Below are positions 3,450 to 17,606 of a DNA stretch of 44,668 nucleotides, in pieces. The stretch comes from a virus. Numbering within the stretch: the first letter of the stretch is position 1; each line of letters begins with the position of its first letter. The translations under genes were made by a program, and so were the position numbers. The stretch covers positions 1-44,668 of IMG/VR virus record IMGVR_UViG_3300036900_000244. One strand, 5' to 3'. The notes beneath the pieces were generated by a model. It searched no databases. It was not told the DNA's origin and saw only the letters and a list, made by a program, of their open reading frames with translations.

Positions 3450-3457
3450 CCCCGTTG
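3450..3457. repeat. Target-site duplication, left copy
   Basis: CCCCGTTG directly precedes the left inverted repeat and recurs exactly at 5681-5688 after the right one. Eight bases is the duplication length usual for the IS1595 family. Confidence 0.9.
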
Positions 3458-3496
3458 CATGCTTATCCGGATCATGCACTTAAGCACAACCTGTAG
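3458..3496 (+). repeat. IS left terminal inverted repeat
   Basis: 39 bp starting CATGCTTATCCGG and ending CACAACCTGTAG. The stop codon of the last passenger gene (3480-3482) lies inside it. Confidence 0.9.
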
Positions 3497-3911
3497 CAAG
3501 GCGCGTTTTCCGTCGCAGATACCGTTCGCGGTTGAAACACTGAGGCGAACAGTAGATCGCCCGCTTGTTGCCTCGCAGGTTGCCGCCAGGGACGCGGCAC
3601 CACTCCACAGCGCACTCCCTGTAGGCGCACACGAAGATCTTCGCCTTGGTCTGGGCATGGCGCCACACACGCACACGTGCCGTTTCTTGTGCTCTGTGCT
3701 GCCGTCCATAGAGGCGTGTGATTTCAAGCCGCCTGATCGGGTGCTCCTTCGCCCATTTCCTGGCGCGCAGTCGCGTTACGAGACGCTCGAACTCCTTCGG
3801 GCCGCCATCAGGGCCGCGAAGAGAAAACCATTCGCGTTTTTTGATGTCCCATGCGGACCGGACCACGAAGCCTTCCTCGGCCTGTATCGCTTCTTTGCCT
3901 TCCTGATCCAT
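3480..3911 (-). CDS. IS passenger: zinc-finger protein
   Basis: A 143-residue basic protein. The C-terminal third has CAYREC then W-C and later YCSPQCFNRERYLRRK, a Cys-pair arrangement similar to FCS/CGNR-type zinc fingers that bind nucleic acid. The N-terminal part (EEGFVVRSAWDIKKREWFSL) is unassigned. It starts three bases after the transposase stop and ends inside the left inverted repeat. Its role in the element is unknown; DNA or RNA binding is inferred. Confidence 0.7.
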   Translation of the reverse strand: MDQEGKEAIQAEEGFVVRSAWDIKKREWFSLRGPDGGPKEFERLVTRLRARKWAKEHPIRRLEITRLYGRQHRAQETARVRVWRHAQTKAKIFVCAYRECAVEWCRVPGGNLRGNKRAIYCSPQCFNRERYLRRKTRLATGCA

Positions 3912-3914
3912 GGC

Positions 3915-4940
3915 TTAGCCTCGCACCGCGAAGCTCGGGTGTTCCCAATCGCCCGAGTAAAGCTGGGCGTAGGTGGCGCTCTCGCTGTCCGCGCCGATGC
4001 CCAGCAGCGACCGGAACGACGTGAAGGGGAAGAAGCGCCGGTTGAAGCGAAAGGTGAACTCGTTGAGGTACGCCTGGAGGTGTTGCGGCGCCACGCCGTG
4101 ATGCACCCCGAGCAACCAGGACTTGAGGTTACTGAACACGAGGTGGATCAGGGGCAGCCACTCCTCGGCCACGTCGGGGTTGCCGTTCTCCGCGACCGCC
4201 TTGTGCTTGAAGTCGTGCTTGCTCAGGGCGTTGTAAGCCGCCCAGTCGTCCGTGATGACGTCGGAGCCGGGCTCGATGGCCATGCGGGCGAAGCCCACGA
4301 GACTCTTGGAGGTTCGATCAGGAACGACGGCCAGTCGCAGGCGTCCAGCGTACCGGCCGCCCCGACGCGGGATGGCCTTGCTCTGCTCGCCGAAGACGTT
4401 CTCCTCGGGACGCGGCCCCTGACGCTTGCGGACCTCTACGGCGCCGATGACGAGCGTCTGGTGATGGACGCCCTTGCCCTTGCCGCGCGTTCTGCCGCCC
4501 ACCCACGTCTCGTCCAGCTCGACCGTATGGACACCGCCGATCATGTCGACGTCTCGGCGCACCATGCCCGCGCGGAGCTTGTGGAGGATCTGAAAGGCCG
4601 TCTCGTAGCGGTTGAGCCCGAGCTGGCGCTGGAACTGGACCGCCGACACGCCGGGCGTGAGCGAGGCCACGAGGTAGGCGCCCCAGAACCACGTCAGCAG
4701 CGGCGTGTGGCTGTCCTGCATGACGGTGCCAGTCGTCAACCGCGCCTCTTTCTTACACGCCTTGCAGCGCAAGACGTGCGGCCTGGTGGCGACGCGCGCG
4801 GGCTCACCGGCCGTCTCGCACGACGGGCAGACGAAACCATCGGGCCAGCGAACGCGCTCCATGTAGGCGGCACAGTGGGCATCGTCCGGAAAGAGCTTCT
4901 GGAACTCGGGGAGACTCTTGGGGAATGGAAGCTCGCCCAT
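3915..4940 (-). CDS. IS1595-family (ISXO2-like) transposase
   Basis: A 341-residue transposase, full length for the family. The N-terminal zinc ribbon uses C38, C41, C59 and C62. The catalytic core shows D143 in VELDETWVGG, D231/D232 in ITDDWAAYN, and a SNLKSWLLGVHHGV block (N271, K273) that fits the DDN-K variant of the DDE site in this family. It cuts and joins DNA at the element ends. The ATG at 4940 follows the TAA of the upstream passenger directly. The match of family, 8-bp duplication and inverted repeats supports that this enzyme moved this element. Confidence 0.95.
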   Translation of the reverse strand: MGELPFPKSLPEFQKLFPDDAHCAAYMERVRWPDGFVCPSCETAGEPARVATRPHVLRCKACKKEARLTTGTVMQDSHTPLLTWFWGAYLVASLTPGVSAVQFQRQLGLNRYETAFQILHKLRAGMVRRDVDMIGGVHTVELDETWVGGRTRGKGKGVHHQTLVIGAVEVRKRQGPRPEENVFGEQSKAIPRRGGRYAGRLRLAVVPDRTSKSLVGFARMAIEPGSDVITDDWAAYNALSKHDFKHKAVAENGNPDVAEEWLPLIHLVFSNLKSWLLGVHHGVAPQHLQAYLNEFTFRFNRRFFPFTSFRSLLGIGADSESATYAQLYSGDWEHPSFAVRG

Positions 4941-5219
4941 TTAAGCCCCGCACTTCGGATGAACCAACTTGTTGCTCTGATTGAGAATCGCGCGGCCAAA
5001 CATGCCTTTGTTGCAGACGCCGCAGAGCTTGGGCTGCCGATCTCGAATCCAGTCAGCAGCAGCGCAGGCGTCCTCGTATTCACGCTCCATGGCTCGCGTT
5101 GCGTCGAAGATTTGCGAGTCCGGGTCGTACCCGAAGAACTCTTCGATGCACTCAAGATGGGCTCGCGTCTGGAGGGCCTGGAGACCACGGAGAACGGAAG
5201 GCGTGAGCTTGGCGTTCAT
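4941..5219 (-). CDS. IS passenger: small zinc-ribbon protein
   Basis: A 92-residue protein with a helical N-terminal half (ALQTRAHLECIEEFFGYD, AMEREYEDACAAADWIRDRQ) and a C-terminal CGVCNKGMFGR...HPKCGA motif that could hold one zinc. Its stop touches the transposase start (TAA-ATG) and its ATG follows the TAA of the upstream gene, so translation is coupled. No family recognised. Confidence 0.65.
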   Translation of the reverse strand: MNAKLTPSVLRGLQALQTRAHLECIEEFFGYDPDSQIFDATRAMEREYEDACAAADWIRDRQPKLCGVCNKGMFGRAILNQSNKLVHPKCGA

Positions 5220-5429
5220 TTAGGCCATTTCCTTTCCTTCGGCTTCCCGCTCCGCCTTCACCTCTTCGTAGGCTTCGTCGAAAGCCTCCTGAGCCGTGAT
5301 CCGGGTAATCGTGACGCGGTAGTGCCCGACCCGCACGGGGGAGACACCCAACGACCGCAGCGCGTCCCGCATGTAGGAGTCGCCCTGCCTGACCTCGACC
5401 CGAGAGACGCCAGTTTCACCGAGGCGCAT
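5220..5429 (-). CDS. IS passenger: hypothetical protein
   Basis: 69 residues, MRLGETGVSRVEVRQ... with a beta-like VGHYRVTITRITAQEAF and an acidic/basic helix at the end (EEVKAEREAEGKEMA). It overlaps the upstream passenger by 14 bases. No family recognised. Confidence 0.6.
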   Translation of the reverse strand: MRLGETGVSRVEVRQGDSYMRDALRSLGVSPVRVGHYRVTITRITAQEAFDEAYEEVKAEREAEGKEMA

Positions 5430-5631
5430 TGGTCGCCTCCATACCAGCGGCGGTCAGGCGGAGATTTCGGATGTGGGCGCGATCGGCGTCCATGTACAAC
5501 TCAACCAGATCGCGCCGCACGAGAGCTTTCCAGGTGGACATCGCCACGCGTTCCACCGTGTAGGACACAGCGCCATGCGCCCTCAGCAGATCGAGGGCAT
5601 CCAGCATCTTCAGAGAGAGGTTGTTTTCCAT
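5416..5631 (-). CDS. IS passenger: hypothetical protein, first gene of the IS operon
   Basis: 71 residues (MENNLSLKMLDALDLLRAHG...), mainly helical; the arrangement ALDLLRAHGAVSYTVERVAMS...LVRRDLVELYMDADR...LRLTAAGMEATNA resembles a compact winged-helix fold with a wing before the final helix, so DNA binding and self-regulation are possible. The ATG lies seven bases after the -10 of the promoter in the right inverted repeat and has no Shine-Dalgarno, so it is probably translated from a leaderless mRNA. Confidence 0.65.
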   Translation of the reverse strand: MENNLSLKMLDALDLLRAHGAVSYTVERVAMSTWKALVRRDLVELYMDADRAHIRNLRLTAAGMEATNAPR

Positions 5632-5638
5632 GACTCAG

Positions 5639-5667
5639 ATCCTACAGGTTGGGCCTAAGTGTGTCAA
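5639..5667 (-). promoter_or_regulatory. IS promoter in the right inverted repeat
   Basis: TTGACA (5667-5662), 17 bp, TAGGAT (5644-5639), then seven bases to the ATG at 5631. It is close to the sigma70 consensus and would make a leaderless transcript covering all five IS genes. Confidence 0.7.
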
Positions 5668-5680
5668 CCGGATAAGCATG
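5642..5680 (-). repeat. IS right terminal inverted repeat
   Basis: 39 bp, inverted relative to the left end, with six differences. It contains the -35 and most of the -10 of the promoter that drives the IS genes. Confidence 0.9.
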
Positions 5681-5688
5681 CCCCGTTG
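5681..5688. repeat. Target-site duplication, right copy
   Basis: CCCCGTTG, identical to 3450-3457; the perfect match suggests an insertion that has not decayed. Confidence 0.9.
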
Positions 5689-5696
5689 TAGATCCC

Positions 5697-5954
5697 ATGG
5701 CGGCCCAGACCGACATCGAAGTAGCTCGGCAAACCTATGCCGTACCGGCGGCCGAGAAGACGAAGCAGGATCAGGAAAAAACCAAGCGAACGGGAATTGA
5801 GTCAGGTTGCAGACTGGCGATCGCTACGGCTCTGATCTATGTCGCATCCCAGAAGATCACAGACAACAAGTGGCTTGCGATCGCGCTGGTCGGAATCGCT
5901 GCGATCTTCGGCGGAAAACCATTAATCGACGCGATCTTCAAGAAGGGCGACTAG
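5697..5954 (+). CDS. Small membrane protein (possible holin-like)
   Basis: An 85-residue protein with a charged N-terminal half (KTKQDQEKTKRTGIE) followed by two hydrophobic segments, about residues 40-52 and 58-74 (WLAIALVGIAAIFGG). Such charged-plus-hairpin proteins often sit near endolysin genes in phages, and an M15 peptidase lies 1 kb downstream; holin is therefore a possibility, not shown. The IS inserted nine bases upstream of its start, so its original promoter has probably been displaced. Confidence 0.6.
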   Translation: MAAQTDIEVARQTYAVPAAEKTKQDQEKTKRTGIESGCRLAIATALIYVASQKITDNKWLAIALVGIAAIFGGKPLIDAIFKKGD

Positions 5955-6051
5955 CCTGCGTCAGACGGATGCCCGCAGCCGGACGCGGCGACTGCTCGCC
6001 CGGATCGCCCGCCGGCCGAAGGTTGATGACGAGAACACTGTCCCCGAAGCC

Positions 6052-6384
6052 GTGCGCTCCATGCGATTTGCCGTGGCCCCAAGCGAGCTGGTTGCCGCGC
6101 TGTCGAACGCCTGTCGTCACCGCGGCGGCCGGCTCGTCAAGGCCGCGCTCGGCAAGCTCGGAGAGCTCGGGTGCCTGGCGTGCTCGTCGAAAGCGATCGT
6201 GGATGATCACGAGGCTGGCTGGGTAAAGTGCATGAGCTGCGGGAGACGCATCCTGCGCGATGAGATGCAGGCCCGCGTCCTCTATGCATCGCGCGAGCGG
6301 TTCGGTGGTGACGATGGCACCGGAGACGCTCGCGACGGAGAAACAAGCGAAAGAGCTGGGGATATCGCTGCGGCACAGCTGTAG
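6052..6384 (+). CDS. Zinc-ribbon protein of unknown function
   Basis: A 110-residue protein (GTG 6052; ATG 6061 also possible). The centre carries CLACSSK and, 17 residues on, CMSCGRRIL, a rubredoxin-like four-Cys zinc ribbon, followed by a basic helix DEMQARVLYASRERF. The open frame extends upstream to about 5950 without a good start codon, so the start is uncertain. It is the last gene before the CRISPR leader. Confidence 0.5.
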   Translation: MRSMRFAVAPSELVAALSNACRHRGGRLVKAALGKLGELGCLACSSKAIVDDHEAGWVKCMSCGRRILRDEMQARVLYASRERFGGDDGTGDARDGETSERAGDIAAAQL

Positions 6385-6469
6385 ACTAGCGGGCGATGTA
6401 TAGGCGCCAGCGCGGCGCTCGCAGCGTGACAATCAAAGAGTTAATGTTGTTGGGTTTTTCGATCGAGCC
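6385..6469 (+). promoter_or_regulatory. Putative CRISPR leader (AT-rich)
   Basis: The stretch 6430-6463 is AT-rich (TGACAATCAAAGAG, then TTAATGTTGTTGGGTTTTTC) in a GC-rich genome and abuts the first intact repeat. The degenerate repeat is at the opposite end of the array, so this side is the expected leader and transcription should run on the plus strand. I see no convincing -35/-10 pair. Confidence 0.45.
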
Positions 6470-6944
6470 CTGATCGCGCCTTCGGAGAGGCGTCGTTTCT
6501 CCGACGAGCGGTACGCAGAGCGCGCCATCTCGCTGAGCGCCGCTGATCGCGCCTTCGGAGAGGCGTCGTTTCTCCGACGATGACCTCTGCCACTTTGGCG
6601 GTCTTGTCGAAGGTCTGATCGCGCCTTCGGAGAGGCGTCGTTTCTCCGACCTATCCCAAGCTCCCTTTCGTTTCTGGCGTATCTCCGCTGATCGCGCCTT
6701 CGGAGAGGCGTCGTTTCTCCGACCGCCACTCCACGTCAGGGGCGAAATCGAGCGGGACCGCGGCTGATCGCGCCTTCGGAGAGGCGTCGTTTCTCCGACA
6801 TGGCAGACCACGTCTCGTCCCATTCGCCATCGCGGCTGATCGCGCCTTCGGAGAGGCGTCGTTTCTCCGACGCCTTGACGACGCAGATTCCACCCGGGCG
6901 GCAACCACTTGATTGAGCCTTCGGAGGGGCGTTGTTCTTCCGAC
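6470..6944 (+). CRISPR. Orphan seven-repeat CRISPR array, no cas genes in the window
   Basis: Six identical 36-bp repeats start at 6470, 6543, 6615, 6688, 6764 and 6836, and a degenerate 36-bp repeat (seven changes) fills 6909-6944. Six unique spacers of 37, 36, 37, 40, 36 and 37 bp separate them. Each repeat begins CTGATCGCGCCT and ends with the hairpin TCGGAGA - GGCGTCGTT - TCTCCGA plus a final C, so the stem sits one base from the following spacer. In the last repeat the stem halves become TCGGAGG and CTTCCGA and still pair along all seven positions (one G-U). No Cas-like protein is encoded in the window. The array lies between a zinc-ribbon gene and the M15 peptidase promoter. Confidence 0.93.
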
Positions 6945-7006: not shown

Positions 7007-7483
7007 ATGGACAATGCGGTACCTGCTTCCGAGACTCCACCGCTAGCCGATGGTCGCCACTTCACCGTCGAGGAAATGAAATGCCACGACGGCACGCCTT
7101 ACCCCGCTGAATGGGGCGACCGTCTGGCGACACTCTTCGGCGTCATGGACGTCATCCGCGACGCCTGGGGCGGTCCGCTGACCGTGGTGAGCGGCTACCG
7201 GTCGCCGGCCCACAACCAAGCGCTCATCGAGCAGGACGAGGCCAATGGATCGCACCAGGTCGCCAGCGGGTCCCAGCACATCGAGGGGCGCGCCGCGGAC
7301 CTCCGGACGGCCAACGGCCCGCAGGACGTGCCGCAGCTCATGCGCGTGATCAACCAACTCTATTCGGACGGGAAGATCCCGGCGCTCGGCGGGATCGGCG
7401 ACTACCCGACGAGCAACTGGGTCCACATCGACGTGCGTCCGCAGGCTCCGCTTGGTCACGTCGCGCGCTGGCGTGGGGTCTGA
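7007..7483 (+). CDS. M15 family peptidase, probable endolysin
   Basis: A 158-residue protein of the M15 (D-Ala-D-Ala carboxypeptidase/VanY-like) zinc peptidase fold. The zinc ligands fit H91 (SQHIEGRAADLR), D98 in the same block and H140 (NWVHIDVR), with the conserved VSGYRSPAHN at 62-70. Such proteins cut peptidoglycan cross-links at the end of the lytic cycle. There is no signal peptide, so it would need a holin; the small membrane proteins at 5697 and 9574 are candidates. It has its own promoter and overlaps the next gene by one base. Confidence 0.88.
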   Translation: MDNAVPASETPPLADGRHFTVEEMKCHDGTPYPAEWGDRLATLFGVMDVIRDAWGGPLTVVSGYRSPAHNQALIEQDEANGSHQVASGSQHIEGRAADLRTANGPQDVPQLMRVINQLYSDGKIPALGGIGDYPTSNWVHIDVRPQAPLGHVARWRGV

Positions 7484-8598: not shown

Positions 8599-8910
8599 CT
8601 AGCTACGGATGGGCGTCGCCTGGCGCAGCTTCTCGCGCACGAGGTCGAGGAACTGGTCGACCTCGACGCGGCCGACTCGATGCCTCGCCAGAAGGATCGC
8701 GCCGACAGCCGCCAGCACGCGGTCCCGCTCCTCGCGCTCGCCGACCCGCCTCCCAACGTCGTAGCCTGGGAGCTTCTCGACCGTCCGGGTCGGCGTGCTC
8801 TCCTCGCGCTCTATCTCAGCGAGGTCAGCGGGTAGGAGGTCGATCGAGGTGGCGGCGTTCTCGCGCTCCCATTCCTTGAACGGATCGCCGTCTTCGGGAT
8901 CATCGGGCAC
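8599..8910 (-). CDS. Hypothetical protein downstream of RuvC
   Basis: 103 residues from a GTG at 8910, inside the 3' end of the ruvC-like gene and behind GGAAG. The N-terminal half is acidic (DDPEDGDPFKEWERENAATS), the second half helical and charged (GEREERDRVLAAVGAILLAR). No family recognised. It is the most downstream gene of the long minus-strand transcription unit. Confidence 0.5.
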   Translation of the reverse strand: MPDDPEDGDPFKEWERENAATSIDLLPADLAEIEREESTPTRTVEKLPGYDVGRRVGEREERDRVLAAVGAILLARHRVGRVEVDQFLDLVREKLRQATPIRS

Positions 8911-9394
8911 GGGGCTTCCAGATGCGCGAGGCGACGATGGCGGCCGCGAGAGCATCGGAGGCGTCCGGATCGGGGCGCCTCTTGAGACCGAGCAGGCGCT
9001 GGACCATGCGAGCCACGGTCGGCTTGTCGGCGCGCCCTGAGCCCGTAACGCCTTTCTTGATCGCGGTCGGCGCCAGCTCCACGATCTCGATCCCCGACCG
9101 CGCTGCCAGAAAGCGCGCCACGCCGCGGGCCTCGGAGCTCACCAAGGCCCCCTGCTGGACGCTGCCACGGATGACGGCGACGAAGCCGTGCTCGAGCGCC
9201 ACGACGTCCGGCATGTGCTCCAGGAGCAACGCTTCCAGATCGGCGCCGATCTCGGCGAGTCGAGTGCCGATCGGTTTCGACGCCGGCGCCGAGATCGTCC
9301 CCGCCTCGACGCACTCGACGGCGGCCCCGTCCGTCGAGATCAGGCCATAGCCCAAGCGCACGCTTCCGGGGTCGAGACCGAGCACGAGACTCAT
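8900..9394 (-). CDS. ruvC: RuvC-like Holliday junction resolvase
   Basis: A 164-residue protein of the RuvC family. Catalytic acids are visible at D8 (LGLDPGS), E68 (VALEHGF), D144 and D147 (PDPDASDALA), equivalent to the four acids of bacterial RuvC. It cuts four-way DNA junctions; phage versions resolve recombination or replication intermediates before packaging. The ATG at 9394 overlaps the upstream stop (ATGA). No RuvA/RuvB partner is present, as is usual for phage-borne copies. Its place downstream of tail and lysis genes suggests late expression. Confidence 0.88.
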   Translation of the reverse strand: MSLVLGLDPGSVRLGYGLISTDGAAVECVEAGTISAPASKPIGTRLAEIGADLEALLLEHMPDVVALEHGFVAVIRGSVQQGALVSSEARGVARFLAARSGIEIVELAPTAIKKGVTGSGRADKPTVARMVQRLLGLKRRPDPDASDALAAAIVASRIWKPRAR

Positions 9395-16712: not shown

Positions 16713-17606
16713 ATGGCTAGCTGTTCAAATTGCGGTGCGGGGCTGAGCGGGCAATTTTGCGCCAGGTGCGGCGCGGATAACGAGACGGCGATCGCGGCCG
16801 AGAGGCCATCACGCTCGGTCGCGGGCGGGGTGGTGGCCGCGCGGCTCGCCGAAAAGCGCCACGGCGTACCCGCGCTGATGTCGTTCTTTTTTCCGGGACT
16901 GGGGCAGTTGATCAAGGGTGATCTGGTCGGAGCCGTGCTGCCATTTGTCGGAGGAGCGGTAGGGCTCATGCTCGCGATTTCCGGCGTGGCGATCGGTATC
17001 GTGCTCGTTCCCATCGTTTGGATCTGGAGCCTGCATGACGCCTATACGGCGCCGGACGGGCAGACGAAGCGCGAGCTCAAGCGCCTCGGTCACCTCGCGG
17101 TGATCCTGGCATGCACATTGGCAATCGGCGGATGTGGCAGCGTCACGGGCGTCCCGTCGTCCGATGACGGAGGAACCGGAGGCGTCGCGGGCAAGATCGG
17201 CGGCGGGGTCGGCGGGGATCGGGGGAATGGCGGAATGGTTGCTACGGGAGGAACGACCGGATCCGGGGGAATCGCCGCGGGAGGATCGCCCGGCGCGGGG
17301 GGCGCGGGAACTGGAGGAGCGCCAGGAACCGGAGGGGCATCCCCGGGGTGCGGATTCGGAAGCGCGATGTGCTCGGATGGCACCTGCAGTTCAGCCGATG
17401 ACGCGTATCACTGCGGAACGCTCTGTTCCGTCTGCGCCGCGGGGGCATCGTGTAACACAGGAGAATGCTTATGCGTGACGCCCGGGCAGCATGTGTGCAA
17501 CGGATTCTGCGTCGATGTCTCGTCCAACACGGGGAACTGCGGAAAATGCGGGACTTCCTGCGCTGCTGGTCAGTCGTGCAGCAATGGATCGTGCGTCAAC
17601 CCCTAG
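16713..17606 (+). CDS. Host-like moron: zinc ribbon, membrane hairpin, Gly-rich linker, Cys-rich end
   Basis: 297 residues. Residues 4-19 form a CxxC...CxxC zinc ribbon; 50-104 hold a TM2-like membrane hairpin (FFFPGLGQLIKGD is typical of that domain); 128-141 look like a second, internal lipoprotein signal ending LAIGGC; 150-212 are Gly/Ser/Thr-rich; 213-297 carry about 16 Cys in motifs such as NTGNCGKCGTSC and SCSNGSC. The last two parts are the hallmark of secreted lipoproteins in Polyangiales-type Myxococcota. The gene opposes the surrounding minus-strand module and ends overlapping its neighbour, the usual look of a moron. It may be a fusion of two host genes. Function unknown; a cell-surface change in the lysogen or infected cell is possible. 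Confidence 0.75.
   Translation: MASCSNCGAGLSGQFCARCGADNETAIAAERPSRSVAGGVVAARLAEKRHGVPALMSFFFPGLGQLIKGDLVGAVLPFVGGAVGLMLAISGVAIGIVLVPIVWIWSLHDAYTAPDGQTKRELKRLGHLAVILACTLAIGGCGSVTGVPSSDDGGTGGVAGKIGGGVGGDRGNGGMVATGGTTGSGGIAAGGSPGAGGAGTGGAPGTGGASPGCGFGSAMCSDGTCSSADDAYHCGTLCSVCAAGASCNTGECLCVTPGQHVCNGFCVDVSSNTGNCGKCGTSCAAGQSCSNGSCVNP

What the first reader, a model, noticed from the sequence alone, without database searches (positions are those of the whole stretch)
6470..6944. A CRISPR array inside a phage genome without any cas gene in 44 kb
Six identical 36-bp repeats and one degenerate repeat with six unique spacers lie between phage genes, directly ahead of the endolysin promoter. No Cas-like protein is encoded anywhere in the window. 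The array may use the host's Cas machinery against rival phages, or may use a Cas protein encoded elsewhere in this phage. Phage mini-arrays are known, but this repeat is not one I recognise.
Basis: partly seen in the sequence, partly recalled or inferred. Interest (0 to 1): 0.85.

Follow-up and report, generated by a model that had tools for sequence, protein, structure and literature searches.

The report
Phage CRISPR array with decayed Cas12m
A bacterial virus carries a real six-spacer CRISPR array, and right next to it sits the last quarter of a broken Cas12m gene, so this is a subtype V-M CRISPR locus that has lost its own effector rather than an array that never had one.

Summary
The array is real: six identical 36-nt repeats, one degenerate last repeat, six unrelated spacers, 6470-6944 on the + strand. 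"No Cas-like protein in the window" is wrong. The frame 5926-6384, ending 85 nt before the first repeat, is the C-terminal end of a Cas12m (subtype V-M): an HMM built from 12 plasmid and viral Cas12m proteins finds it at E 2.6e-9 (next best in the window 0.078; best of 5000 shuffles 0.14). The homology runs upstream of any start codon, so the gene is 5'-truncated. No other part of Cas12m is in the window. The repeat has the V-M architecture in exact register (stem I, GCC/GGC pseudoknot, terminal GAC), shared with V-M repeats of plasmids and viruses with strong covariation. Most likely this is a V-M locus whose effector was lost recently; the array is now an orphan, able to act only if a host or co-resident element supplies Cas12m. 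No relative of the repeat was found in IMG/VR or about 85,000 genomes, and no spacer matched in the searches I could run, so function is unproven. V-M loci in phages and orphan phage arrays are already known; this is a modest addition.

The parts
6470..6505 (+). CRISPR repeat 1 (36 nt), leader-proximal
   Evidence: V-M repeat covariance model register 1-36
6506..6908 (+). spacers 1-6 (6506-6542, 6579-6614, 6651-6687, 6724-6763, 6800-6835, 6872-6908) alternating with identical repeats at 6543, 6615, 6688, 6764, 6836
   Evidence: spacers mutually unrelated
6909..6944 (+). degenerate terminal repeat TTGATTGAGCCTTCGGAGGGGCGTTGTTCTTCCGAC; keeps stem I and the GCC/GGC pairing
5926..6384 (+). 5'-truncated cas12m: C-terminal remnant. 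Homology starts near 5995. Zinc-ribbon CxxC...CxxC and the RuvC-III Asp are kept; the first in-frame start codons (GTG 6052, ATG 6061) lie inside the homologous domain
6385..6469 (+). leader-like intergenic stretch between the cas12m stop and the first repeat; A+T-rich just before the repeat
   Evidence: the gap is 34-166 nt in three other V-M loci
5697..5954 (+). small ORF (85 aa, hydrophobic, holin-like by appearance) whose stop abuts the remnant; the truncation junction lies between its end and about 5995
3458..5680 (-). IS1595-family insertion (transposase 3915-4940) with terminal inverted repeats and an exact 8-bp target duplication CCCCGTTG (3450-3457 and 5681-5688); its end is close to the start codon of the ORF at 5697
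7007..7483 (+). M15-type endolysin downstream of the array

Best explanation
This is a subtype V-M (Cas12m) CRISPR locus carried as phage cargo between a small hydrophobic gene and the endolysin gene, whose effector gene was cut off at its 5' side. About the last 130 codons of cas12m, the leader and the array remain. In an intact V-M locus the array is transcribed from the leader, Cas12m itself trims the pre-crRNA, and the Cas12m-crRNA complex binds PAM-flanked DNA and blocks transcription or replication without cutting. Here the remnant lacks most of the protein, including the N-terminal domains, RuvC-I and RuvC-II, so the phage most likely cannot do this by itself. The loss looks recent, because the array shows almost no decay and the remnant frame is still open with its zinc-ribbon cysteines. 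Shown: the array, the Cas12m identity of the remnant, the V-M repeat architecture, the truncation. Inferred: loss of function and its recency.
For: Cas12m HMM (12 proteins, none from the window) against the six-frame window: 5926-6381 E 2.6e-9, model 454-553 of 561, next hit 0.078; best of 5000 shuffles 0.14. PADLOC Cas12u1, i.e. V-U1 = V-M, 3.4e-5, stronger when the frame upstream of the start codon is included. Best PDB match is UnCas12m4a, E 0.013, colinear, residues 506-596 of 614. Closest full-length relative is the viral Cas12m of L108 (phmmer 6.6e-8). No Pfam OrfB zinc-ribbon match, so not ordinary TnpB. The 36-nt repeat aligns without gaps to V-M repeats of Meiothermus, Pelobacter, Manganitrophus and Mycobacterium plasmids and of viral contigs: 97.8% of cells paired, 35 double changes, 0 of 500 shuffles. 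A covariance model made without this repeat ranks all seven copies first in the window, exact register, right strand. Gene order cas12m-leader-array on one strand is that of V-M loci. V-M loci lack adaptation genes, use no tracrRNA and bind without cutting (PMC11013384).
Against: Six perfectly identical repeats could also mean that the array is still under selection. The remnant keeps C-x2-C, C-x2-C and the RuvC-III Asp, which a small functional protein would also do. Part of the repeat panel was picked with the stem as a criterion (the Meiothermus, Rctr197k, pPRO1 and L106 arrays were not). The whole-window E-value of the covariance model is weak (0.055 per copy) and the default-filter search missed the copies. 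The record may be a fragment and read support for the junction cannot be checked. AlphaFold gave no usable model (pLDDT 53.6).
Confidence: 0.6

Rival explanations
1. The array is a functional orphan: its crRNAs are made and used by a Cas12m supplied in trans by the host chromosome, a plasmid or another phage, and silence rival phages or plasmids in the shared cell. The phage dropped the bulky effector and kept the guides.
For: Array intact with six identical repeats and pairing kept even in the last repeat; viral mini-arrays that use host machinery are documented (PMC11656645); V-M is common on plasmids and found in viral contigs.
Against: The repeat was found in no sequenced species genome (degenerate pattern), nor with up to 3 mismatches in 120 genomes, nor in other viruses. 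A recently lost effector explains the intact array equally well.
Confidence: 0.25
2. The cas12m truncation is not fixed: it is an assembly chimera, or a minority deletion, and the phage population carries the complete locus (or a complete cas12m lies on the part of the genome missing from this record).
For: The record is linear without end repeats and no replication genes other than a RuvC resolvase were recognised among the genes searched; the near-identical contig L002 and the relative L003 do not cover this region.
Against: The remnant ends in the normal place before the leader, and the adjoining ORF is complete; nothing else of Cas12m is in the window.
Confidence: 0.1
3. The array belongs to a host class 1 or other CRISPR type and its place next to a Cas12m-like zinc-ribbon ORF is a coincidence.
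For: No identical repeat was found anywhere; zinc ribbons occur in many proteins.
Against: The HMM match is specific and colinear over 100 residues; the hairpin ends two bases before the spacer, as in V-M, with no 8-nt class 1 tag; register and pseudoknot fit V-M repeats; shuffles of the repeat fit stem, pseudoknot and GAC with frequency 1.5e-5.
Confidence: 0.04
4. Ordinary tandem repeat without CRISPR function.
For: None beyond repeat periodicity.
Against: Six unrelated spacers of 36-40 nt, a degenerate terminal repeat, a leader, a cas remnant.
Confidence: 0.01

Closest known systems
Subtype V-M CRISPR-Cas12m loci (MsCas12m of Allomeiothermus silvanus pMESIL02; others in PMC11013384)
   Same: 36-nt repeat with stem I, pseudoknot and terminal GAC, array downstream of cas12m on the same strand, no cas1/cas2 found, no anti-repeat found
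   Different: Effector truncated to its C-terminal quarter; only about 29-32% identity to known Cas12m over that part
Virus Rctr197k (KX853510) and IMG/VR contigs L103-L110 with Cas12m
   Same: V-M locus in a viral genome; L108 is the closest relative of the remnant
   Different: Those have full-length Cas12m (L105 is cut by its contig end); most are larger genomes; repeats differ in sequence
Virus-borne CRISPR mini-arrays (Medvedeva et al. 2019, as reviewed in PMC11656645)
   Same: Array without its own working cas genes in a virus
   Different: Mini-arrays carry one or two spacers and host-identical repeats; here six spacers, no host repeat found, and a cas remnant attached
Orphan arrays in phages reported in surveys (PMC12607003)
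   Same: Array with no intact cas gene nearby
   Different: Here the missing effector can be named from the remnant

Membership tests
Subtype V-M (intact system) | Cas12m effector gene, about 500-680 aa, with RuvC-I/II/III and zinc ribbon | tested here: not met
   Only the C-terminal about 130 codons (model 454-553 of 561); nothing else of Cas12m in six frames
Subtype V-M (derived remnant) | Cas12m sequence next to the array | tested here: met
   E 2.6e-9; colinear with UnCas12m4a; closest to viral L108
Subtype V-M (derived remnant) | 36-nt repeat with stem I and stem II (pseudoknot) and conserved 3' end | tested here: met
   Ungapped alignment, GAC end, pairs 14-18/30-34 and 9-11/20-22
Subtype V-M (derived remnant) | Array downstream of cas12m on the same strand | tested here: met
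   Stop 6384, first repeat 6470; other loci 34-166 nt apart
Subtype V-M (derived remnant) | No adaptation genes | tested here: met
   No Cas1, Cas2 or Cas4 in the PADLOC scan of 70 ORFs; holds for this window only
Subtype V-M (derived remnant) | No tracrRNA | tested here: inconclusive
   No anti-repeat better than chance in the window; RNA not available
Subtype V-M (intact system) | crRNA-guided, PAM-dependent DNA binding without cleavage | not testable with these tools
   Needs expression
Virus-borne mini-array that uses host Cas proteins | Repeats identical to a host CRISPR system | tested here: inconclusive
   No match in about 85,000 species genomes; host unknown
Virus-borne mini-array that uses host Cas proteins | One or two spacers | tested here: not met
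   Six spacers
Virus-borne mini-array that uses host Cas proteins | Spacers target related viruses | tested here: inconclusive
   No match in reference phages and plasmids, session loci or limited IMG/VR scans of spacers 1 and 2

The most novel reading that the evidence does not exclude
A phage has shed the V-M effector and kept a guide-only array that parasitises a Cas12m provided by the host or a co-resident plasmid or phage, silencing competitors by DNA binding; the retained C-terminal Cas12m piece might itself modulate that enzyme.
Probability: 0.2. Interest if true: 0.7.

Novelty: new member of a known kind. Interest (0 to 1): 0.45.

Why it matters
It shows that an apparently cas-less phage array can be typed from a cas remnant below normal annotation thresholds, and it adds a phage with a decaying V-M locus to the few known viral V-M loci. 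If the array still works in trans, it would be a guide-only phage weapon built on a non-cutting effector. The covarying repeat panel (stem I, pseudoknot, GAC) is a practical signature for recognising V-M arrays without cas12m.

Tried and rejected
Exact repeat in IMG/VR and degenerate repeat patterns in IMG/VR and genome contigs: none. Array against reference phages and plasmids: only chance-level pieces. Remnant as a single-protein query in IMG/VR: none; as alignment A2: not conserved enough to search. Portal and endolysin relatives do not reach the array region or lack an array. Host inference from the IS1595 transposase: the relatives listed are mostly Proteobacteria at 58-68% identity, not informative. 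Repeat with 3 mismatches in 120 genomes of one phylum: none. Cas12f assignment of the remnant: rejected, because Cas12u1 (Cas12m) models and a Cas12m structure score best once the full frame is used. TnpB: no Pfam OrfB zinc-ribbon match. Structure prediction of the remnant: too low confidence to compare. The IS1595 element as the cause of the truncation: not supported, since its end lies about 300 nt from the Cas12m homology with an intact ORF between and a clean target duplication. Spacer targets: two IMG/VR scans and the session's loci, no match.

Full report
OBSERVATION. Six identical 36-nt repeats start at 6470, 6543, 6615, 6688, 6764 and 6836; a seventh, degenerate copy is at 6909-6944; spacers are 36-40 nt. 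The spacers are no more similar to each other than shuffled versions. The degenerate copy at the far end puts the leader on the low-coordinate side, where 6385-6469 becomes A+T-rich just before the first repeat. The window is an IMG/VR virus record, linear and possibly incomplete. It carries terminase, portal, major capsid and endolysin genes, so the array does lie in a tailed-phage genome.

THE MISSED CAS GENE. A PADLOC scan of 70 ORFs gave weak Cas12f and Cas12u hits for one small ORF, 6052-6384, just upstream of the array. Opening the frame upstream of its start codon strengthened the match to Cas12u1 (now Cas12m, subtype V-M) from 3.4e-3 to 3.4e-5. That behaviour is expected of a truncated gene and not of a small complete one. 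The best match among all PDB chains is UnCas12m4a, colinear over residues 506-596 of 614, at a modest E of 0.013. I fetched Cas12m genes from plasmids and a virus, built an HMM without the window, and searched all six frames. The frame 5926-6381 scores E 2.6e-9 (model 454-553 of 561) and nothing else is better than 0.078. Of 5000 shuffles of the remnant the best scored 0.14. The invariant Arg, the zinc-ribbon cysteines and the RuvC-III Asp are kept. Homology starts near 5995; directly upstream lies the end of an unrelated small ORF (5697-5954). So the gene lost its 5' three quarters, including RuvC-I and RuvC-II.

THE REPEAT IS A V-M REPEAT. Arrays next to Cas12m in Meiothermus pMESIL02, Virus Rctr197k, Pelobacter pPRO1 and viral contig L106 were found without using structure. 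Further copies came from a scan that required stem I and a terminal AC or GAC. All align with the window's repeat over 36 columns without gaps. Pairs 14-18/30-34 and 9-11/20-22 are formed in 97.8% of cells with 35 double changes, against 64.6% and 9.4 in shuffles, and sliding the partners destroys the signal. The pseudoknot pairs 9-11/20-22 were not a selection criterion. Shuffles of the repeat meet stem, pseudoknot and GAC with frequency 1.5e-5. A covariance model made without the window's repeat ranks all seven copies above everything else in the window, in exact register and on the + strand, although its E-values are weak because the model is short. With default filters the same search missed them. 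The gap from cas12m stop to first repeat, 85 nt, lies within the 34-166 nt of other V-M loci.

NEIGHBOURHOOD. An IS1595-family element, 3458-5680, has an exact 8-bp target duplication (CCCCGTTG) and sits just before the start codon of the small ORF at 5697. It is a separate insertion and does not abut the Cas12m break. The remnant's G+C at third codon positions (0.74) is below that of most phage genes compared (0.79-0.93; the small ORF at 5697 has 0.69) and its codon score is near zero, which fits foreign origin, decay, or both.

HOW IT WORKS. In V-M systems Cas12m processes its own pre-crRNA, needs no tracrRNA, and blocks transcription or replication by binding without cutting (PMC11013384). 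A protein cut down to the zinc-ribbon end cannot be expected to do this. I therefore read the locus as recently decayed. Use in trans of a Cas12m from the host or another element remains possible and would resemble virus-borne mini-arrays (PMC11656645), but no matching host repeat was found and no spacer target was found in the searches that could be run.

NOVELTY. V-M loci on plasmids and in some prophages are known (PMC11656645), IMG/VR was already mined for Cas12m (PMC11013384), and orphan arrays in phages have been reported (PMC12607003). I found no paper describing a phage array orphaned by truncation of cas12m, within a library that lacks most subscription journals. The finding is a decayed member of a known kind.

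A SIDE OBSERVATION THAT MAY MATTER MORE. Viral contigs L103, L104 and L105 carry a Cas12m gene followed by at least 25 units of 30 nt with about 18-nt spacers in which every unit differs but stem I covaries. Standard array finders would probably miss this.

Noticed in passing
L104:6758-8105 (same array in L103 and L105; L104 contig 180 kb): Downstream of a full viral Cas12m (645-codon frame) lie at least 25 units of 30 nt, spaced mostly 47-48 nt, with about 18-nt spacers. All 25 units differ in sequence, yet the GCC/GGC pseudoknot never varies and stem I covaries (31 double-changed cells, 0 of 500 shuffles). A V-M array with diversified, compensating repeats and very short spacers; standard CRISPR finders would probably miss it.
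   Followed up: partly
L107 and L110, downstream of cas12m: Similar scattered hairpin units with alternative stems (GCTGGGA..TCCCAGAC and GCTGAGA..TCTCAGAC), possibly the same kind of diversified array.
   Followed up: partly
window 3458-5680: IS1595-family element with an exact 8-bp target duplication and extra small ORFs beside the transposase, inserted in the phage just before the start codon of the ORF at 5697.
   Followed up: partly
L100:2316-2831 (Methylorubrum populi pMPPM05): Another C-terminal-only Cas12m ORF (171 aa) on a plasmid, without a detectable array and near an IS5 transposase.
   Followed up: no
window 16713-17606: The one MXAN_6577-like cysteine-rich family match among the window's ORFs most likely comes from this glycine- and cysteine-rich protein inside the phage structural region; a possible hint of a Myxococcota host.
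   Followed up: no
window 8900-9394: RuvC-type Holliday junction resolvase of the phage.
   Followed up: no
L098, L099 (Caballeronia and Paraburkholderia plasmids): Full-length Cas12m homologues directly before a replication protein gene, with no array found by the simple scans used here.
   Followed up: no
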